The notes beneath the pieces are model-generated. The model searched no databases. It saw only the letters and a list, made by a program, of their open reading frames with translations, and had not been told where the DNA came from. The position numbers were made by a program, and so were the translations under genes. A stretch of 64,000 bases of DNA from Ignavibacteria bacterium (GTDB taxonomy: Bacteria > Bacteroidota > Ignavibacteria > Tepidaquicellales > OLB5), in assembly GCA_020852705.1 (NCBI GenBank), contig JADZAP010000012.1, forward strand, positions 1 through 64,000. Direction: 5' to 3'. Below are positions 1 through 50,847 of this stretch, piece by piece. The first letter of the stretch is position 1, and every line of letters starts with the position of its first letter.

Positions 1-129
1 AAGGCATTTAGTGGGCAATTGTCAGAATTAAGATTAGATGGATTAAAAGATGATAGGATTACAGAGAATAATAAAAATCAAATCCTAAAATCATCAAATC
101 TTATTAATCATAATTCAGACAATTTATGA
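1..129 (+). CDS. hsdS: Type I restriction specificity subunit HsdS, C-terminal end (partial)
   Basis: The frame is open from base 1 and stops at TGA 127-129. It begins KAFSGQL, which matches the AFSGEL/AFNGEL-type end common in HsdS subunits. HsdS carries the target-recognition domains of a type I restriction-modification complex. After that motif the remaining residues are encoded by an inverted repeat (20-60 and 81-121), so the protein tail seems to have been extended by the repeat. The stop overlaps the ATG of the next gene (ATGA), which suggests translational coupling. The gene runs off the left edge; hsdM would be expected upstream. The call rests on one short motif plus the adjacent hsdR. 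Confidence 0.6.
   Translation, partial: KAFSGQLSELRLDGLKDDRITENNKNQILKSSNLINHNSDNL
20..121. repeat. Inverted repeat, 41-nt arms with GATT periodicity
   Basis: The arms are 20-60 and 81-121, with a 20-nt loop. The left arm starts TGTCAGAATTAAGATT and the right arm ends TAATTCAGACA. Reverse-complementing the right arm gives the same pattern of TGTC(A/T)GAATTA followed by GATT cores at intervals of about 8-10 nt. The repeat sits exactly at the hsdS/GxxExxY junction, encodes the last HsdS residues and ends 4 nt before the GxxExxY ATG. The same family recurs at 522-562, 17184-17300, 18869-19010 and 19439-19480. Confidence 0.85.
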
Positions 130-545
130 AACACGAAGAAATTACACATAAAATAATTGGCTGTGCTATGAAAGTGCATAGCACCTTAGGCAATGGCTTT
201 CAAGAAGTGATTTATCAGCGGGCATTGGCTATTGAAATGGAAAAGCAAGGGTTGAGCTTTCAGCGTGAAATGGAAATGACGATTTTTTATGAAGGCATTG
301 ATATTGGCACTCGCAGGGTTGATTTTTTTGTAGAAGAAAACATAATGGTAGAGCTAAAAGCACTAATAAAATTGGAAGAAGTGCATTTGGCTCAAGCAAT
401 GAACTACTGCCAGGCATATAATTTACCTATAGGGTTATTGATAAATTTTGGAGCAAAAAGTTTGGAATTTAAAAGGGTGTATAATGTCAATCATCCTGAC
501 AATAAAGACTACATCAAGAATAATCCTAAAATCATCAAATCCTAA
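126..545 (+). CDS. GxxExxY family protein (PD-(D/E)XK nuclease-like)
   Basis: 139 residues. The family-defining motif appears as GNGFQEVIYQ (about residues 22-31), and a PD-(D/E)XK-like core follows: RRVDFFV then VELKA (D66, E76, K78 region), so a nuclease fold is likely. The biological role of the family is not established to my knowledge. The ATG overlaps the hsdS stop, and the gene lies between hsdS and hsdR of a type I restriction operon. Its last residues (PKIIKS) are encoded by the downstream repeat arm 522-562. A clear paralogue, about 60% identical by eye, sits in the second restriction locus at 18991-19416. Confidence 0.85.
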   Translation: MKHEEITHKIIGCAMKVHSTLGNGFQEVIYQRALAIEMEKQGLSFQREMEMTIFYEGIDIGTRRVDFFVEENIMVELKALIKLEEVHLAQAMNYCQAYNLPIGLLINFGAKSLEFKRVYNVNHPDNKDYIKNNPKIIKS

Positions 546-14000: not shown

Positions 14001-14475
14001 ATAAAAATATTAATTACAGAATAAGTTCAATTTAAGAAAATAAATGCAAGATTAACTTAAAAGGTCAGTTAATTCAATGCAAAAAATGCAAATTTATAAA
14101 GAAATTAAATAAAACGGGTAGATTTACGCTATATATCGAAGTAAAATAGTTTGGCAAATTTATGCTTAATTATGAAAAAAGTAAAGGGACATAAAAATTC
14201 CGTCCATTTTAAAAAAAAGTATTAATTAATGCTGCACAGCAATAAAGATAAATTAAAATTTTCAACTGCGGTTTGGGTATTGGCGATGGTGGAGAATACG
14301 AAACACAAAACTGTCAACCAGCACTAAAGTTTGATAGAATTACAGCCGTTGAATTTAGTACAAATGTTTCATAGTAGCACTTCTGCCGCCATTTTGGCAA
14401 TACCGTGTTAGCGGTTCGTTCTTCTTTTTCTGTATGTTATTAGTCCGTTCATTTTGTCTGTCGTGGTGCGTTGGC
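14001..14475. other. Intergenic region at the left edge of the restriction island
   Basis: 475 bases without a supportable gene. It holds the left copy of the 84-bp direct repeat (14120-14203). The stretch 14250-14420 is richer in G+C than the flanking genes and contains ACCGTGTTAGCGG (about 14402-14414). From memory, this resembles a sequence that recurs between genes in Bacteroidota genomes, but I cannot confirm that here. Confidence 0.5.
14120..14203 (+). repeat. 84-bp direct repeat, left copy
   Basis: Aligned without gaps to 20453-20536, 72 of 84 positions match (86%, counted by hand). Both copies share AGATTTACGCTAT at the start and ATTCCGT at the end. The copies bracket the 6.2-kb restriction-modification island in the same orientation. 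Confidence 0.85.
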
Positions 14476-17043
14476 TTATTTTACAACGTTTTTAAATGTC
14501 AAATATTCTTGTCGTGTTAGTGTGGTGTCGTATAGACCGATGTCTTCACCAGCGTGTTTGTTAATGCCGGTATATTCCAAACTTGCGTCTTCGTAGCGTT
14601 TAAACTTGTAAACCGCATCGTTCATTAAGGCAGAATTGAAAACTCCTAAACTCACCAGCAATTCAAAGTCCTTTACCTTTAGTCCTGTCACTTTGCGGAA
14701 AAGTTTAGGTTCAAGTTTTGTAATTACATCTTTCAAACTGCGTTCACGGTAATCGGTTAAATACATAAAGATTGGAACCCGTGTCGCAAACTTGATAAGT
14801 TTTTCCTGAATTTGTTTTCGCAAATTCCTGTATTCTTTTTCTTCTTCAGTAAGTTCTTTTTTCTTCTTGTCGCTTAGTTTTTCTGTGCCTTCTTTTTTGG
14901 CTTTCTTAATTTTATCTGACTTATTAATGATGGTTTCAATATCTTGGTTTAAGTTACGGAAACCTTCAATGTTCATCAACGCTTTCATTGCTTCTTCATT
15001 GTTCATCAAACGCTGCAATGTGTTGTTATCCACGTTTACAAGCAAAGCACTTTCCCAGCGTCTGGCAAGCAGTGTTGCAGTTGTTCCGCTCATGGCAATA
15101 TCTAAAATTCCTGCCGCATCAATTTGTTTCATTGAACTGCCGTCATAAGCCAACACAGGCAGGAAGTTTATAAATTCTTCAACATTCTTTTCGGGATTGC
15201 TTTCATTGATGTTTAATTTGCAGGCATATTCAGCAATTTGTTTTAACGCACGGTTTGGTGCAAAGTCAAACACATAGCATTCTTCCTTCAAAATTTCTAC
15301 TTTGTTGGGCGATATGCTGTCAGGATTTTTGATAAACCAAGGTGTTTGCACACGAAATGCGGCTTGAAAATATGTTTCGGGACTTGATGAATTTCTGAGC
15401 ATAAAAATGCCTGTCCACGGTTTTACCGTAACGCCTGTTGTTAGTTTGCCGCAAGAAAGTGTAATGGTTTTTGATTGCAAGGGTTCGTCCATTCCGTTTA
15501 AAACAGGCTCCAATGCTTTTACACCAATTCCCGCTTCAGTGCCTGCTGCAATAATTACTTTGTAATCGTGATAAAACTGGTTGTTCCTTTTTTTCATCAA
15601 GTTTGCCATTGCATAACACGAAGCCACCGAAGGTAAAAACCAAAATGTATGATTCAACACGCTTTTAAGCCGTGCATCTGAATAAGGCAAAGGCGGTTTT
15701 TCTGTTTTCAGTTTCAGCGTATCAACAATTTGTTCGGAGAATGAACCACGAATTAAATCAAGCCATTTTTGCACATCATCTTCGTATTTAAAATGGGCTT
15801 TACTTCCTTCGCCTTCGGCTTTAAAAAATATGTTTAAGTCAAATCCGTCAAACTCACCCAGCTCCGCAACTTTGGTAATAGTTTCGGGAAGCTGGTAAGT
15901 AAGCATAACCATTCTCGGCAAACAGGTATAAGGATTTGTTCCGTCTTTTTTATTCCAGTTTTCTTTGGCTCGCTGTTCGTCTGAATATGTCCAATTGAAA
16001 ATTTGTTCTTCAATAAATTCACCCGAATTGATGGCACGGAAAGGCGTTCCAGACAAATACAAAAAGTGATTGGCTTTGATGGGCAATATATCTTCCAATA
16101 CATCTACTTTATCTTCGTCAGAAAAACCTTTCTTTTCTATTTCCTTAAAATCCTCAATTTCTTTTTCTGCTTCGCTGTCTTTACCAAATAAATCCTTGGC
16201 ATTTTCACGCCAAGCTCCAAAGTGGTATTCGTCAAACACAATACAATCCCATTCGGTATTATGTACCCACTCGTTTTTTACTTTTATGCTTCCGTCTTTT
16301 TGCGTGCCTAAATAATCCTGAAACGAACCGAAACACACTAAATTGGTTTTGGATAAATCAGTTTTCCCTTCGGCTTTGCTCAGGGCAGGCTTAGAAATAT
16401 TTTCTGCTTCATTTTTTGAGAAGAATGTCCACCCTTTAAAATCGGTATGGGTGTTTAAATCTTCACTCCAGGCAACTTCTACGGCTGGTTTAAACGTTAA
16501 GACCAATACCTTTTTCCATTTCATTTGCTTGGCAAGCTGATAGGTGGTAAAGGTTTTGCCGAAACGCATTTTTGCGTTCCATAAAAAGTGAGGTGTTTTG
16601 TTCGGGTTTTCTTTTTTGAAACTCTTATAGTAAGCAATGGTTTTGGTAACGGCTTCCTGCTGCTCAGCTCGCATACTAAAATTAAGCACCCTGTTTTCAT
16701 CGGTGTGCTCGCCTGTCTTAATTTCGTGTATGGCTTTGCGTAATTGGTTGAGTGTGCAAACAAACCATTCGCCTTCGGGATTTTTTATGTTGTCTCTACG
16801 CAGTAAGCCGTGAACCGCTTTGTCGGTAAAGCTGCTGCCGTCTGCCCGCATAGCACTTTCTTCAAACACAATTTTAAATTCGGCACGGGTGGCACCAATT
16901 TGTTCTTTAATGCGTGTATGTGCATCACGGTCGGTAAAACCGATTTTTATTTGCCCCCTGCGTTTGCTGTCGTTGGGCAGCTCATAAGCGTAAATGGTTG
17001 GATTTACACTTGGGCGTGGCGGAAAAAATTCTTTTTTACTCAT
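14476..17043 (-). CDS. GIY-YIG nuclease / DEAD-like helicase restriction protein
   Basis: 855 residues. An N-terminal GIY-YIG-type nuclease of the T5orf172/MUG113 kind is visible (TIYAYEL at 17-23, then IKIGFTDRDAHTR at about 32-44). It is followed by an SF2 helicase with P-loop NAKMRFGKTFTT, VFDEYHFGAW (DEYH box) and LYLSGTPFRA. A later Arg-rich stretch (AAFRVQTPWF) would be motif VI. The fusion of cutting and translocation with adjacent methyltransferases points to restriction. A foreign seven-residue piece, ALSKAEG (near residue 225), is encoded by a short repeat at 16366-16390. The start codon overlaps the stop of an upstream RhuM-like remnant. Confidence 0.82.
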   Translation of the reverse strand: MSKKEFFPPRPSVNPTIYAYELPNDSKRRGQIKIGFTDRDAHTRIKEQIGATRAEFKIVFEESAMRADGSSFTDKAVHGLLRRDNIKNPEGEWFVCTLNQLRKAIHEIKTGEHTDENRVLNFSMRAEQQEAVTKTIAYYKSFKKENPNKTPHFLWNAKMRFGKTFTTYQLAKQMKWKKVLVLTFKPAVEVAWSEDLNTHTDFKGWTFFSKNEAENISKPALSKAEGKTDLSKTNLVCFGSFQDYLGTQKDGSIKVKNEWVHNTEWDCIVFDEYHFGAWRENAKDLFGKDSEAEKEIEDFKEIEKKGFSDEDKVDVLEDILPIKANHFLYLSGTPFRAINSGEFIEEQIFNWTYSDEQRAKENWNKKDGTNPYTCLPRMVMLTYQLPETITKVAELGEFDGFDLNIFFKAEGEGSKAHFKYEDDVQKWLDLIRGSFSEQIVDTLKLKTEKPPLPYSDARLKSVLNHTFWFLPSVASCYAMANLMKKRNNQFYHDYKVIIAAGTEAGIGVKALEPVLNGMDEPLQSKTITLSCGKLTTGVTVKPWTGIFMLRNSSSPETYFQAAFRVQTPWFIKNPDSISPNKVEILKEECYVFDFAPNRALKQIAEYACKLNINESNPEKNVEEFINFLPVLAYDGSSMKQIDAAGILDIAMSGTTATLLARRWESALLVNVDNNTLQRLMNNEEAMKALMNIEGFRNLNQDIETIINKSDKIKKAKKEGTEKLSDKKKKELTEEEKEYRNLRKQIQEKLIKFATRVPIFMYLTDYRERSLKDVITKLEPKLFRKVTGLKVKDFELLVSLGVFNSALMNDAVYKFKRYEDASLEYTGINKHAGEDIGLYDTTLTRQEYLTFKNVVK
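16366..16390 (-). repeat. Short interspersed repeat read as PALSKAEG inside the helicase gene
   Basis: CCCTTCGGCTTTGCTCAGGG followed by CAGGC. An identical 21-base core occurs at 18301-18321 in the methyltransferase gene. It is in frame and in the same orientation in both genes, giving ALSKAEG. The core is partly palindromic (CCCT...AGGG). Confidence 0.85.
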
Positions 17044-17174
17044 TTGTCACTCTCAAAAAGAACAGACATCTGTTCCTGATTCAACCATACGGTGTCCTTA
17101 TCTAGGTTTACCATCAATTCAATCTTCCGGTCTGTTGTTTTAATATTTCGATATTGTTTTCCATTCTCATTTCT
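17040..17174 (-). pseudogene. N-terminal remnant of a RhuM-like DNA-binding protein
   Basis: On the minus strand a frame reads KTTDRKIELMVNLDKDTVW then LNQEQMSVLFESDK and stops. This matches the N-terminal DNA-binding start of RhuM/virulence-type proteins (DxxTVWLNQEQMxxLF). Only about 45 codons remain; the rest is missing because the frame stops at TGA 17042-17040, overlapping the ATG of the helicase gene. The remnant may be what is left of a gene replaced by the helicase, or it may serve as a leader peptide. ATG 17114 is the only normal start inside it. Confidence 0.5.
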
Positions 17175-17183
17175 TCCATTTTT

Positions 17184-17300
17184 TGTCAGAACTGTGATTT
17201 AGTTGATTATCGTCTGAACTGTGATTTGCTTGATTTTTTTGATTGCTGTGATTATAAATCATAGCTCATCATATAAATCACAAAAATCAAGGTTCTGACA
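17184..17300. repeat. Inverted repeat, GTGATT-type, between methyltransferase and helicase genes
   Basis: Left arm 17212-17253 starts GTCTGAACTGTGATTTGCTT. Right arm 17257-17300 ends AATCAAGGTTCTGACA. They are imperfect reverse complements with a 3-nt loop. A partial extra left copy (TGTCAGAACTGTGATT) lies at 17184-17209. The layout (TGTC(A/T)GAA then GATT cores every 7-10 nt) is the same as at the GxxExxY junctions, but with TGATT cores in place of GGATT. The right arm encodes the last residues (SEP) of the methyltransferase. Confidence 0.8.
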
Positions 17301-18867
17301 TTGGCCGTATCATACTTTCTATAAAAGCTATTTCCTCTTTTGTTAGCCCATATTTTTTATAAAGTTTTTCATCTGTCCATAATTCATTGAAGTCTTGCAT
17401 AGGAACAAACTGGTATACACCCTTTGCAGCGTGCTGAGTGTTTTTTCGTAACAAAACTAAAAACCTAAAAAACTTAGTTGTAATGTAAGAAAGAACATTC
17501 AATGTTCTCTTTTCGGACGAAAAAGGTCCTATAACAAGATAGGTCTCTGTGCAACAACTATTAGGCTCACCATAAAAAGGCTTGTTAATTATTTGGTGAG
17601 GAAAATCTTCGCCTGCACCATAAGCCATTGTTATATATATTTTATGTTCTTTTACCCAATCTTTATTTTGCACCACTTCATCAGGTGAAATATATCCAAC
17701 ACTTTTATTGCCATATATCTTAACTGAACCTTTGAAGGAATTGCTTTTACCTTTAAAAAAAGTTCTAAATCCAAATGGTTTTTGTGTGCTTACTAATTCA
17801 CTAAAAGACTTTTCATTGAGTGTCTTAACTTTCCTAAGGACTGAAATTGCTTCATTATATCTTACAAAGATGTCACTATTTTTTTCTAATAAAGGTCTGG
17901 TTAATACCGAAACCTTTTCACCACGTTTTGTTGTTACTTCGCATTGACCCTTGAAGTCTTTCTCCCATAAAAAGTAACATACACCGCCCTTAATTTCTAC
18001 ACCTGGGAAGCATTCTGATGAAACTGGATAATCAACAATTTTAGATATTCCGTTGTCATGCAACATTTCATCCCTAAATTCATCCAACCCCCTTCCCCCT
18101 GCAAACCAACGGGAAGGTATAATCATTGTTAAGTAATTTGGATTTAACTTTTTTGCTTGTTGAACAAATCTATGATAAAGAGGAATTGCACCACCCCTTG
18201 TTCTTGTTTCTTCATTATTATCACCACCATCACTCAACTGATAAGGCGGGTTTCCTATAATTACATCAAATTTCATTTCTTGTCCTTTTTTTAATTTCTT
18301 CCCTTCGGCTTTGCTCAGGGCATGGTTTGTATTTTTAAAAAGTTGTGCCGGGTTTTCGGTGTGTATAAAGTTGTAAGCATAGCTTTCGGCTTCATCGCCG
18401 CGGTCATACACTTCCTGGCTTGCTCCGCAGTGTGTGCATTTGCCATTTTCCCAACTGTGCTGCATACGTTCATAGCGTATGTTGCCTTGCATACTATCAA
18501 ACCTTTCGCATACCGCATATTTGCCGTTGGCGGTTTTGCTGCAATACACGCTTCTGCGGCTAAGCATTGCGGTTAATTCCGTAATGGCAATGCCATACAA
18601 TTGGTTTTCAAAAATGTGGTTGATGCGTTTTTGCTTATCGGGTATTTTCTTTTCTAAACCTGACATAAGTCGTTTGGCTATTTCACGCAAAAACACACCG
18701 CTTTTACATACAGGGTCTAAAAATGTAGTATCGGGGTTGCTCCAAAGTTCTTTTGGTAATAAATCCAATATATTATTTACCAAGCCGGGCGGTGTAAATA
18801 CCTCATCGTTGCTCAGGTTAGCCAGGCAGGTAAGCACATCGGGGTTGTAGTTAGTTGTCTGCATCAT
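17287..18867 (-). CDS. Eco57I/TaqI-like N6-adenine DNA methyltransferase
   Basis: 526 residues. It has EVFTPPGLV (22-30), SAM motif I as FLDPVCKSGVFL (49-60), and motif IV NPPY (206-209), so it should methylate adenine N6. A possible zinc knuckle CTHC lies at 144-147. The C-terminal half (about 260-500) should hold the target-recognition part. ALSKAEG at 183-189, just before motif IV, is encoded by a short repeat. The ATG follows the repeat arm ending CAGACA by one base, and the last residues come from another repeat. It lies between GxxExxY and the helicase gene. The start could also be the second of two ATG codons. Confidence 0.85.
   Translation of the reverse strand: MMQTTNYNPDVLTCLANLSNDEVFTPPGLVNNILDLLPKELWSNPDTTFLDPVCKSGVFLREIAKRLMSGLEKKIPDKQKRINHIFENQLYGIAITELTAMLSRRSVYCSKTANGKYAVCERFDSMQGNIRYERMQHSWENGKCTHCGASQEVYDRGDEAESYAYNFIHTENPAQLFKNTNHALSKAEGKKLKKGQEMKFDVIIGNPPYQLSDGGDNNEETRTRGGAIPLYHRFVQQAKKLNPNYLTMIIPSRWFAGGRGLDEFRDEMLHDNGISKIVDYPVSSECFPGVEIKGGVCYFLWEKDFKGQCEVTTKRGEKVSVLTRPLLEKNSDIFVRYNEAISVLRKVKTLNEKSFSELVSTQKPFGFRTFFKGKSNSFKGSVKIYGNKSVGYISPDEVVQNKDWVKEHKIYITMAYGAGEDFPHQIINKPFYGEPNSCCTETYLVIGPFSSEKRTLNVLSYITTKFFRFLVLLRKNTQHAAKGVYQFVPMQDFNELWTDEKLYKKYGLTKEEIAFIESMIRPMSEP
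18301..18325 (-). repeat. Short interspersed repeat read as ALSKAEG inside the methyltransferase gene
   Basis: CCCTTCGGCTTTGCTCAGGG then CATGG. It shares its first 21 bases with 16366-16386, in the same orientation and reading frame. It inserts ALSKAEG shortly before the NPPY motif. Confidence 0.85.
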
Positions 18868-18868
18868 T

Positions 18869-19010
18869 TGTCTGAATCAGGATTTGTGTGATTTTAGGAT
18901 TTTCAGGATTACTTTCATGTAATTCATCTTTTATTATATTTATTTTTTTATTTTTTTTCTTTACCAACCAATCCTGTTCATATTTTAATCCTACAAATCC
19001 TGATTCTGAC
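18869..19010. repeat. Inverted repeat, GGATT-type, between GxxExxY and methyltransferase genes
   Basis: Left arm 18869-18910 starts TGTCTGAATCAGGATTTGTG. Right arm 18970-19010 ends CAAATCCTGATTCTGAC. The arms are imperfect reverse complements of 41-42 nt around a 59-nt T-rich loop. On the minus strand the right arm encodes the last residues of the GxxExxY protein, and the left arm ends 1 nt before the methyltransferase ATG. Confidence 0.85.
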
Positions 19011-19416
19011 TTTTATTTGGATTTACAGGATTCAAGTTATATTTTGGATTGAAAATTTTCTTGAATTGCAGACTTGTTGAACCAAAATTGATAAGCAAAC
19101 CAATTGGTTTATCGTAAGCAACTACATAGTTTTTAGCTTGGGCAAGTTGTACATCTCCCAAATCAATAATTGCTTTTAATTCAACCACTATATCACTTTC
19201 AACAATAAAATCTGCTCTTCGAGTGCCAACGTGAATTCCGTCATAAAATATATCTTGCTCAATTTCTCTTCCAAAGCTCATGCCGGCTCTTTCTAATTCA
19301 ATGGCTAAACAACGCTGATATATCACTTCCTGAAAGCCATTGCCAAGTGTGTTATGTACTTTCATGGCGCAGCCATTAATTTTGTATGTTATATCATCAT
19401 ATTTATTCATCTTCAT
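18991..19416 (-). CDS. GxxExxY family protein, second copy
   Basis: 141 residues, about 60% identical by eye to the copy at 126-545. The motif GNGFQEVIYQ is unchanged, and the PD-(D/E)XK-like RRADFIV...VELKA is present. The C-terminal KSQNQDL is encoded by the repeat arm 18970-19010. It lies between two methyltransferase-type genes in the second restriction locus and is probably transcribed with them. Whether it takes part in restriction or only rides in the operon cannot be decided from sequence. Confidence 0.85.
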   Translation of the reverse strand: MKMNKYDDITYKINGCAMKVHNTLGNGFQEVIYQRCLAIELERAGMSFGREIEQDIFYDGIHVGTRRADFIVESDIVVELKAIIDLGDVQLAQAKNYVVAYDKPIGLLINFGSTSLQFKKIFNPKYNLNPVNPNKSQNQDL

Positions 19417-19438
19417 TATTTTTTAATCTTATCTAGCT

Positions 19439-19480
19439 AATCCTGTTAATCTTTAAATCCCGAAAATCCTGATTCTGACA
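19439..19480. repeat. 42-nt repeat arm between the small methyltransferase and GxxExxY genes
   Basis: It starts AATCCTGTTAATC and ends AATCCTGATTCTGACA, in the same orientation as 18970-19010, so the two form direct copies around the GxxExxY gene. On the minus strand it encodes the last residues (SESGFSGFKD) of the small methyltransferase protein. Confidence 0.85.
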
Positions 19481-20132
19481 GTTTTAAAAAATGCACTAAC
19501 GGAAAATCTTTTACCGGCTCATCAATGGCGTTGGCTTCGCCTTCATCATTAAAGAACGAGAACTGATGTGTTTTTTCTACCAAAAATTTAAACATATAAT
19601 CTCTGCGTTTCAGCATTGTTCCGTTTACGGCACTCCACTCACTGAAAATGATTGGCTGTTTTGTCTGCGGATTGGTAAAATCCAAAGCATCGCCCCACAA
19701 AATGTTTCGGTGCAAAAGAAAGTCCACACTACGCAGCACTTCGGGTTTGCATTTGCCGGCAAACAGGGCGTTGTAGCGTTCTTTAAAGATGTTGAATAAA
19801 CGCTTGCGGCATTCTTGGGCATTGTCTTCCAAAATATCCACTCCGTAAATATTGCAAACGGCAAGCACTGCGTAACGTTCCCACTCAATTTGGGTGTGGG
19901 CATATTTGTGTTCAACAACGTTTAGTTTTCTGTTCAGCACTTCTGCAAGGAAGTTGCCGTTACCGCAAGCAGGTTCAAGAAAGCGGCTGTCAATGCGTTC
20001 AGTTTCGTGTTTCACAAGGTCAAGCATAGCGTTTACTTCTCGTTGGTTTGTAAATACTTCGCCATGGTCTGCAACCCGTTTTTTGGATTTTACTTGCTTG
20101 TCTTGTTTTATTACTTCGTTCAATTCTATCAC
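19446..20132 (-). CDS. Small SAM-dependent methyltransferase-like restriction subunit
   Basis: 228 residues. It has VADHGEVFTNQREV (20-33) and a clear SAM motif I FLEPACGNGNFLAEVL (51-66). I see no NPPY/DPPY motif IV; the place is occupied by ILWGDALDF and FSEWSAV. It may therefore not catalyse on its own, and may instead pair with the 526-residue methyltransferase of the same operon, like a split enzyme. The last ten residues come from the adjacent repeat, which suggests the original C-terminus was altered. It is the first gene of the minus-strand restriction operon. Confidence 0.78.
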   Translation of the reverse strand: MIELNEVIKQDKQVKSKKRVADHGEVFTNQREVNAMLDLVKHETERIDSRFLEPACGNGNFLAEVLNRKLNVVEHKYAHTQIEWERYAVLAVCNIYGVDILEDNAQECRKRLFNIFKERYNALFAGKCKPEVLRSVDFLLHRNILWGDALDFTNPQTKQPIIFSEWSAVNGTMLKRRDYMFKFLVEKTHQFSFFNDEGEANAIDEPVKDFPLVHFLKLSESGFSGFKD

Positions 20133-20452
20133 TTAATTAATGCTTTTCAAAGTTAAAACATAATACCGATGTTCAGTCTGTTTTTGTCTAAAAGTCCACT
20201 TGTTCCATTGTCAGGGTAGTGGGTCGGGCTTGTGCGGCTGGCAATTCACCGTTTACGTGTCTGGTTTTTTCAAAATCTCACTCAACCTTCAAATTTACGC
20301 ATTGCGTCAATTTTTTACAATCTATTTTTCGCTAATATATTAATTTTGTATAGTTATAATTAAATTTTACCAAATTTGCCCAAATGCGTCAAGCAACATT
20401 TGTCAATATTTAAATGATTAGTAAAAGTCTGTAGGTTTAGTACATAATGATT

Positions 20453-20536
20453 AGATTTACGCTATTTATCGAAGTAAAATAGTTAAACAAATTTATAGTA
20501 AATTATAAAAAAAATAAAGGGAGAGAATAATTCCGT
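20453..20536 (+). repeat. 84-bp direct repeat, right copy
   Basis: Matches 14120-14203 at 72 of 84 positions without gaps. It ends about 38 nt before the start of the DinG-type helicase promoter elements. Confidence 0.85.
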
Positions 20537-50419: not shown

Positions 50420-50782
50420 GGGGATGAATTTGGTTTCGACGGGAATGTAGATGTTTAAGATAGCATTCCGTGTTCTCAGCAAAGCACGTTAAAAAGGCTG
50501 AAAAGTCAAAATAAACGACAACTATAATTACGCTTTAGCTGCTTAATAAATAAGCCGCTCGTCTTTTACCGCTTCCACTGCCCACTTGGAAGGTAAAGGG
50601 CGCCAAAATTGTGGGCTGGCCGCAAAGTTTACTTGAGCTAAACGGTGAGAAATCTTCAAGTGTAGGTTTTGTACCGCTACGTTAGCGAGGCTGTGCAAAA
50701 ACCGAAATCTAAACGCTGACTATGAATGTAGGCGTCTTAATGGTCTTGTTTTCGGACCCGGGTTCGACTCCCGGCATCTCCA
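50420..50782 (+). ncRNA. ssrA: tmRNA (SsrA)
   Basis: The 5' end GGGGATGAATTTGGTTTCGA pairs with CATCTCC at the 3' end (50775-50781) to form the acceptor stem. GGTTCGACTCC is the T arm and A50782 the discriminator; CCA is not encoded (CTA follows). The tag frame after GTC reads KINDNYNYALAA then two TAA (50508-50549). It rescues stalled ribosomes with SmpB and tags the peptides for proteolysis. The first tag codon is inferred by comparison with the E. coli tmRNA. Confidence 0.95.
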
Positions 50783-50847
50783 CTAATTTTTATCCTGCAA
50801 AATCTTCAATTTTATAAATAGCTGCAATTTGAAAAATAAAAATATAA

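What the first reader, a model, noticed from the sequence alone, without database searches (positions are those of the whole stretch)
19446..19480. Repeat DNA supplies protein C-termini at five stop codons
HsdS, both GxxExxY proteins, the small methyltransferase (ending SESGFSGFKD) and the 526-residue methyltransferase (ending SEP) all finish inside a repeat arm. Insertion at or just before stop codons, with tails replaced rather than genes broken, implies a preferred landing site or strong purifying selection.
Basis: seen in the sequence. Interest (0 to 1): 0.55.

Follow-up and report, generated by a model that had tools for sequence, protein, structure and literature searches.

The report
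Repeat-flanked nuclease elements at gene junctions
Short inverted DNA arms, often carrying a small nuclease gene, have slipped in exactly where one bacterial gene ends and the next begins, and the arms themselves supply the new stop codon and sometimes the new start codon, so neither gene is broken.

Summary
Four of the five named proteins stop inside a repeat arm; the fifth, HsdS, reads through a 100-nt hairpin and stops just past it. Relatives without the repeat end differently, and their similarity stops at the arm's first base. In empty relatives the two methyltransferase genes overlap or touch; in occupied ones the arm begins at the same base, replaces the upstream tail and stop codon, and in some relatives also supplies the next start codon. 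The arms are the ends of elements whose usual cargo is GxxExxY, a PD-(D/E)XK nuclease with a RecB/Cas4-like fold. GxxExxY genes lie between inverted arms built of 8-11-nt units in 51 of 89 loci, against 2 of 120 control genes, and arm type follows nuclease subfamily. All nine arms of this genome lie in two restriction-modification loci. One junction holds 86%-identical elements in 58%-identical host genes, and different contents in 80-87%-identical relatives. This favours recurrent, position-specific arrival, helped by purifying selection in compact operons. No transposase, bounding RAYT or target duplication was found, so what moves the element is inferred. Ten library searches found no paper describing it.

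The parts
1..129 (+). 3' end of HsdS; native end KAFSGQL at 1-21, then 35 codons (SELRLDGL...NSDNL) from the hairpin and its edge; stop TGA 127-129
   Evidence: relatives end KAFSGEL*, KAFAGELG*
21..120 (.). two-arm hairpin, translated as the HsdS tail
   Evidence: fold -22.8 kcal/mol, z -5.1
126..545 (+). GxxExxY-1 (139 aa), PD-(D/E)XK nuclease; start overlaps HsdS stop (ATGA)
   Evidence: TIGR04256 140 bits, PF13366 138 bits
520..561 (-). right arm after GxxExxY-1; holds its stop codon
565..2973 (+). HsdR (EcoAI type), ATG 3 nt after the arm edge
   Evidence: NF046051 798 bits for the longer ORF from 448
14476..17043 (-). T5orf172/helicase-like restriction subunit (855 aa), downstream gene of locus B
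   Evidence: PF10544; PADLOC type IIG
17185..17299 (.). three-arm hairpin between the 526-aa methyltransferase and the helicase
   Evidence: fold -29.2 kcal/mol, z -4.2
17287..18867 (-). Eco57I-type methyltransferase (526 aa), native end RPM then arm-coded SEP*
   Evidence: PF07669; relatives end otherwise
18870..18911 (+). outer right arm of the GxxExxY-2 element, 2 nt before the ATG of the 526-aa methyltransferase
18970..19010 (-). inner arm; holds the stop codon of GxxExxY-2 and pairs with 18870-18911
   Evidence: fold of 18870-19010 z -6.0
18991..19416 (-). GxxExxY-2 (141 aa), PD-(D/E)XK nuclease
   Evidence: TIGR04256 126 bits, PF13366 121 bits; AlphaFold2 pLDDT 88.8
19438..19479 (-). left arm of the GxxExxY-2 element; holds the stop codon of the 228-aa methyltransferase
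   Evidence: base-exact insertion edge
19446..20132 (-). small methyltransferase (228 aa), native part to HFLKL then arm-coded SESGFSGFKD*

Best explanation
The repeat arms are the two ends of a family of small mobile elements. An element is two inverted arms of about 45 nt, each about four units spaced 8-9 nt, with little between them (a hairpin of 50-200 nt) or with cargo, most often a GxxExxY nuclease gene. Elements sit where one cistron ends and the next begins. SHOWN: the left arm replaces the last native codons and gives a new tail and stop; the right arm ends at, or supplies, the next start codon; the same base at the methyltransferase junction is occupied by different elements in different lineages; arm type goes with nuclease subfamily. 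INFERRED: (1) elements move between chromosomes independently of the host gene; (2) entry prefers short junction sites, and insertions elsewhere are removed by selection; (3) junction insertions persist because the arms carry stop codons in more than one frame, so both proteins survive; (4) GxxExxY, a RecB/Cas4-like nuclease, recognises or processes its own arms. Step 4 is the least certain (about 0.35).
For: Empty against occupied site in relatives whose flanking DNA is 80-87% identical: L083 reads TTAAAACT-TGGTGATAATGATACAGCAG-AACTATAATCCC; L079 reads TTAAAACT-[GTCAGAATC...CCAGAC]-AAATTATAATCCC; L085 reads CTAAAACT-[GTCCGAAC...TCCAGAC]-AATTATAATCCA. Left edge at the same base in WIN, L075, L079, L085, L391-L394. 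The element moves apart from its host gene: WIN and L079 nuclease 86% and methyltransferase 58% identical, DNA 88% in the arm bin and 44-52% in the two bins just outside it; WIN and L075 the reverse, methyltransferase 90% but nuclease 54% with another arm type. Start codon supplied by the arm in L075, L085, L087 and L393. Flanking inverted repeats: 51 of 89 GxxExxY genes, 2 of 120 control ORFs. Arms near 26 of 68 homologs of GxxExxY-1 picked by protein alone, control pattern 1 of 68, and 47 of 80 homologs of GxxExxY-2, control 1 of 80; no GTC arm in the 70 rows outside that clade. Tree: GTC against other repeat labels needs 1 change once 'none' rows are dropped, 2 with them, shuffled mean 14. 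Inward pairs 350-800 nt apart: 6 GxxExxY and 1 RhuM-like of 7. Fold nearest SSO0001, Z 9.6; D68, E78, K80, Q92, Y96 invariant in 45 rows.
Against: No target-site duplication over 99 elements. No transposase between arms. Arm-rich genomes exist without the nuclease: G196 with 29 pattern matches and G023 with 11 had no TIGR04256 match. 42 of 68 homologs lack a strict arm, though some carry variant units. The tree rows with GTC arms were found mostly through arms; only searches are free of that bias. Recent duplicate copies of one GxxExxY element in one genome were not shown. Site reuse could partly be one old insertion whose content was exchanged. Elements also lie away from junctions: 7 of 30 upstream stops are more than 20 nt before the arm.
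Confidence: 0.68

Rival explanations
1. Insertion is random. The elements are passive MITE-like repeats moved in trans by an unrelated enzyme; GxxExxY, RhuM and others are passengers, and only junction insertions survive because operons are compact.
For: All three frames are used for in-arm stops (15/10/5). Native junctions overlap, so a tolerated insertion must lie near both codons. Other cargo occurs at the same junctions: RhuM-like, KilA-N-like, four-helix-bundle-like (these names are recalled from the sequences, not from a family search of those loci). Arm-rich genomes can lack GxxExxY.
Against: The same base at the methyltransferase junction in 8 of 8 loci with a left arm, with different contents. 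Arm type goes with nuclease subfamily.
Confidence: 0.4
2. The arms are REP sequences moved by RAYT (TnpA-REP) transposases.
For: Most arm-rich genomes carry Y1_Tnp genes (19 of 21). REPs are known to give stop codons to genes (PMC3733652, passages read). RAYT or RAYT-like genes sit at the HsdS-HsdR junction in L192, L193 and L197 (L193 named by sequence likeness).
Against: None of 30 RAYT loci has arms on both sides; strict matches in 2 of 30, one inside the RAYT frame and one 1.4 kb away (the 30 include weak partial hits). No GTAG or CGTC tag as a rule: the base before GTC is T in 77% and C in 11%.
Confidence: 0.08
3. The arms act in RNA: they pair, RNase III cuts out the cargo message, and the element is a between-gene counterpart of rRNA intervening sequences.
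For: Strong hairpins (z -4.2 to -6.1 in 4 of 5 folded stretches; the fifth, a single-arm stretch, -1.95). A four-helix-bundle-like gene lies at the same junction in L087.
Against: Arms 400-600 nt apart need not pair in the message; no transcript data; does not explain movement or the unit spacing.
Confidence: 0.08
4. The arms are recombination points for shuffling restriction-modification genes.
For: Arms lie between such genes; the 526-aa methyltransferase is only 62% identical between WIN and L075 while its neighbours are 90% and 87%.
Against: The fall in identity lies inside the methyltransferase (82-95% over the first 160 residues, 20-32% around residues 320-440), not at an arm.
Confidence: 0.05

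Closest known systems
REP / REPIN elements with RAYT transposases
   Same: Short palindromic chromosomal repeats near gene ends that can supply a stop codon (PMC3733652, passages read)
   Different: No GTAG tag, no bounding RAYT, longer arms of about four 8-9-nt units, nuclease cargo
Rickettsia palindromic elements (RPE)
   Same: Palindromic repeats translated in frame as part of host proteins (recalled; RPE named as CGTC-tagged in PMC3733652)
   Different: Here at gene ends and starts, with stop and start supplied; no CGTC tag as a rule; protein-coding cargo
MITEs
   Same: Non-autonomous hairpins with terminal inverted repeats; 63 of 99 elements are under 200 nt
   Different: No target-site duplication and no matching transposase found
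GxxExxY proteins (TIGR04256 / PF13366)
   Same: Both window nucleases pass the curated cut-offs
   Different: No paper linking this family with flanking arms was found in the searches listed in the report
TAACTGA heptamer arrays of Beggiatoaceae
   Same: Short-unit arrays just upstream of start codons, shared by Cyanobacteria and Bacteroidetes (PMC4679880, passages read)
   Different: Another motif, direct not inverted, no bounded element

Membership tests
TIGR04256 GxxExxY | score over the curated cut-off of 35 bits | tested here: met
   140.3 and 126.2 bits
PD-(D/E)XK nuclease, RecB/Cas4-like | conserved D, E-x-K and Q-x-x-x-Y residues and fold | tested here: met
   D68, E78, K80, Q92, Y96 invariant in 45 rows; nearest fold SSO0001 Z 9.6, rmsd 3.1, 99 aligned; activity not tested; the motif set is recalled
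REP element of RAYT | GTAG or CGTC tag at one end | tested here: not met
   end consensus AATTGTC; C before GTC in 11%
REP element of RAYT | RAYT gene bounded by the repeats | tested here: not met
   0 of 30 RAYT loci with arms on both sides
MITE | terminal inverted repeats | tested here: met
   99 inward pairs; hairpins z down to -6.1
MITE | target-site duplication | tested here: not met
   shared k-mers at the edges near the shuffled mean for k 4-5; 5 against a mean of 1.4 (max 5) for k 6
Insertion sequence | transposase gene between the ends | tested here: not met
   6 GxxExxY and 1 RhuM-like in 7 inward pairs of 350-800 nt
Homing-type nuclease element | nuclease cuts the empty site and not the occupied one | not testable with these tools
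   needs purified protein

The most novel reading that the evidence does not exclude
GxxExxY elements are an undescribed class of mobile DNA in which a RecB/Cas4-like nuclease, not a transposase, recognises its own inverted arrays of 8-11-nt units and re-enters the genome at cistron junctions, where the arms act as ready-made stop and start codons. The CACAGAG-type arms around the other GxxExxY clade would be a second branch of the same class.
Probability: 0.3. Interest if true: 0.85.

Novelty: new variant of a known kind. Interest (0 to 1): 0.64.

Why it matters
It would give a function to a very common orphan nuclease family (in 152 of 296 Bacteroidota genomes sampled), explain many odd protein tails and starts in this phylum, and show a way for DNA to enter tightly packed operons without breaking a gene. 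It makes a direct test possible: does the nuclease bind or cut its own arms?

Tried and rejected
RAYT association: rejected after 30 loci. Target-site duplication: not found. Arms as shuffling points: identity falls inside the methyltransferase instead. Rfam: only tmRNA in the window at the gathering threshold. Plasmids and phages as carriers: 7 of 72,556 plasmid records, all under 60% identity, and 0 of 50,697 phage records match the nuclease. Empty site of the whole 6-kb locus B in same-genus genomes: G271 and G306 have the right-hand helicase gene (88% identical), but the window's left flank was not found within 1.5 kb, so uninformative. A general arm-like target motif: the resemblance of the methyltransferase start (ATGATNCAGACAA) to the arm end (TGATTCAGACAA) did not recur, by eye, in the other right flanks. 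Fold search: apart from SSO0001 at Z 9.6 all listed rows are under Z 8, so no closer family is claimed. Literature: ten searches gave no paper that ties GxxExxY to flanking arms; of the two papers holding 'GxxExxY' I read one passage of one.

Full report
What is in the window. Two restriction-modification loci carry the arms. Locus A (1-2973): HsdS end, hairpin, GxxExxY-1, arm, HsdR. Locus B (14476-20132, minus strand): 228-aa methyltransferase, arm, GxxExxY-2, two arms, 526-aa Eco57I-type methyltransferase, three-arm hairpin, T5orf172/helicase protein. The window begins at the start of contig C18. In the whole genome (2,943,393 bases, 75 contigs) the arm pattern occurs 9 times, all in these two loci, and the reversed control 0 times. 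A same-genus genome, G271, has none. The genome has six GxxExxY genes; only the two in the window have these arms. The arms therefore most likely came in with the loci (inference). Supporting this for locus B, MAGs named Crocinitomicaceae, Flavobacteriales and Bacteroidetes carry the small methyltransferase at 94-96% identity, and two of them the helicase at 92-94%, one as a C-terminal part only.

Where native similarity ends. For the 228-aa methyltransferase I fetched 16 relatives (one search matched 26 of 395 genomes, own included). Twelve of the 16 are empty at the junction (L076-L078, L080-L084, L086, L088-L090), three are occupied (L075, L079, L085) and one, L087, has a right arm only. 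In L076 the native end reads HFLKLGEDDTNEL*, with the next start inside it. In the window the protein reads HFLKL and then SESGFSGFKD* from the arm. For the 526-aa methyltransferase, relatives without the arm there end RPM plus varied tails (DLSQNDGTDE, ELNDEQ, EAVNE and others) and overlap the helicase start by 8-11 nt in five of them; the window and L075 read RPM then SEP* from an arm. For HsdS, relatives end KAFSGEL* or KAFAGELG* (L199, L197) and the window reads KAFSGQL and then 35 residues coded by the hairpin and its edge. For the nucleases the family model ends at residue 118 of 139 and 121 of 141, and the last 11 residues of GxxExxY-2 are disordered in the model (pLDDT under 50).

Arms also supply starts. 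In L075 the downstream methyltransferase starts MNHSSDI and then NYNPD, in L085 MNQRNHQNHSPD and then NYNPD, in L087 MNHSSD and then SYNPD: the ATG and first residues are arm DNA (read). In L393 the arm ends in ATGATTCAGAC. In the window itself the downstream gene keeps its own ATG, 2 nt from the arm.

Empty against occupied, in close relatives. L083, L079, L085 and L087 have 80.5-86.5% identical DNA over the small methyltransferase and 83-87% over the start of the next. L083 is empty. L079 has a GxxExxY element, L085 a hairpin of about 140 nt, L087 a four-helix-bundle-like gene with only a right arm. L079 and L085 start at the same base, after AAAACT, and about 20 nt of the empty junction are replaced (or 8 nt if the arm-like native start in L079 is counted as kept). 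A tree of the small methyltransferase needs 3 changes between arms and empty, of which starred branches force 2 (9 occupied rows including L087, 12 empty; five distant rows not counted). The left edge is at the same base in all eight loci with a left arm there (WIN, L075, L079, L085, L391-L394).

Elements move apart from their hosts. WIN and L079 nucleases are 86% identical and their methyltransferases 58%; along the DNA, 50-nt bins read 44-52% just outside the left arm, 88% in it, 72-84% in the nuclease. WIN and L075 are the reverse: methyltransferase 90%, nuclease 54%, another arm type (CAGGATT against TGTGATT), same base. Both are hard to explain by inheritance with the host gene alone; exchange of the content of one old insertion remains possible.

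How general it is. In 99 fetched regions plus the window and four relatives, 182 arms were placed against a crude ORF map. These regions were chosen because they hold the pattern. After removing duplicates and two chance matches (L157, L160), 68 arms had a gene's 3' end within 150 nt: the stop is inside the arm in 30, 3-30 nt before it in 18, at the edge in 1, further in 19. In-arm stops use frames in the ratio 15/10/5. In 80 loci chosen by nuclease protein alone, a left arm was found in 40, a right arm in 31, both in 24, any in 47, control pattern in 1. Of 30 left arms with a same-strand gene upstream, the stop is inside the arm in 16, within 20 nt before it in 7, further in 7; of 23 right arms with a same-strand gene downstream, the start is inside the arm edge in 4, within 3 nt after it in 6, 4-30 nt after it in 7, elsewhere in 6. 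Neighbours: 15 of 68 upstream proteins match HsdS (Methylase_S), 4 the MmeI-type methyltransferase, 6 acyl-CoA dehydrogenase; 6 of 56 downstream proteins match HSDR_N and 6 AHSA1. So restriction loci are common but not the only hosts.

The nuclease and the arms belong together. Of 89 GxxExxY genes with flanks, 51 have inverted repeats above all 50 shuffles by at least 2 points; the same test on 120 of 212 control ORFs gave 2. The arms of other GxxExxY genes are made of CACAGAG, CGCAAAG or CGCAGATT units. Labels by unit: CAGAG 59, GTC 15, CRGATT 5, none 10. On the nuclease tree the GTC label needs 2 changes (1 if 'none' rows are dropped; shuffled mean 14.0, 0 of 500 as low). Because those 15 were found mostly through arms, I repeated it with protein alone: 26 of 68 homologs of GxxExxY-1 have GTC arms, control 1 (69 loci given, one without a hit), and 38 of 68 have significant inverted repeats, several with unit variants kept the same in both arms, such as CAGAATT in L343 and L371. 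Unit spacing is 8-11 nt in 758 of 896 GATT intervals and 237 of 326 CAGAG intervals.

What the cargo is. AlphaFold2 gives a confident single domain (mean pLDDT 88.8, 45 sequences). The best solved match is SSO0001 (Foldseek E 4.4e-4; VIA Z 9.6, rmsd 3.1, 99 aligned); that SSO0001 is a Cas4-type protein is recalled. Lambda exonuclease, Cas4-family and Holliday-junction resolvase chains follow at weaker scores. D68, E78, K80, Q92 and Y96 are invariant, the set expected of a RecB-type nuclease (recalled). Nothing here shows that it acts on the arms.

Reading of the mechanism. Random insertion with purifying selection explains junction location and mixed frames. It does not by itself explain the same base in separate lineages with different contents, nor the match of arm type to nuclease type. 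I therefore favour a mobile element with some site preference, kept at junctions by selection, with the nuclease as its likely but unproven partner. Evidence against that partner role: arm-rich genomes without the nuclease (G196, G023), no target duplication, no copies caught in the act.

Known or not. Papers seen: PMC3733652 and PMC6006769 (start of abstracts and passages), PMC4679880 (start of abstract and passages), PMC8934634 (one passage); others in search listings only. REP stop-codon supply is in print (PMC3733652). Nothing in ten library searches links GxxExxY with flanking arms; most subscription papers and preprints are not held, so this is not proof of absence.

Noticed in passing
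window 14119-14203 and 20452-20536: 85-nt direct repeats, 86% identical, flank locus B and occur nowhere else in the genome; they may mark how the 6-kb locus entered.
   Followed up: partly
L192, L193, L197 (HsdS-HsdR junction): A RAYT or RAYT-like gene sits between HsdS and HsdR in three relatives, at the junction where the window has GxxExxY-1.
   Followed up: no
L251-L320 flanks: GxxExxY genes of the other clade are flanked by inverted arrays of CACAGAG or CGCAAAG units, a different arm family.
   Followed up: partly
L343, L354, L371, L448, L461, L466: Within one element the units carry the same variant (GAATT instead of GATT) in both arms, as if units are kept alike inside an element.
   Followed up: no
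L392: The 526-aa methyltransferase is missing and only the C-terminal part of the helicase follows the nuclease.
   Followed up: no
L396, L413, L450, L459, L468: In several HsdS-like genes the arm begins 10-11 nt after the same conserved glycine codon of the C-terminus (read by eye), a possible second reused site.
   Followed up: no
window 50420-50785 +: tmRNA gene.
   Followed up: no
L391-L470 neighbours: Acyl-CoA dehydrogenase upstream (6 of 68) and AHSA1 downstream (6 of 56) of the nuclease point to a fixed old insertion in one group; aconitase-type domains upstream (2) and downstream (2) may be a leuC-leuD junction. Not checked locus by locus.
   Followed up: no
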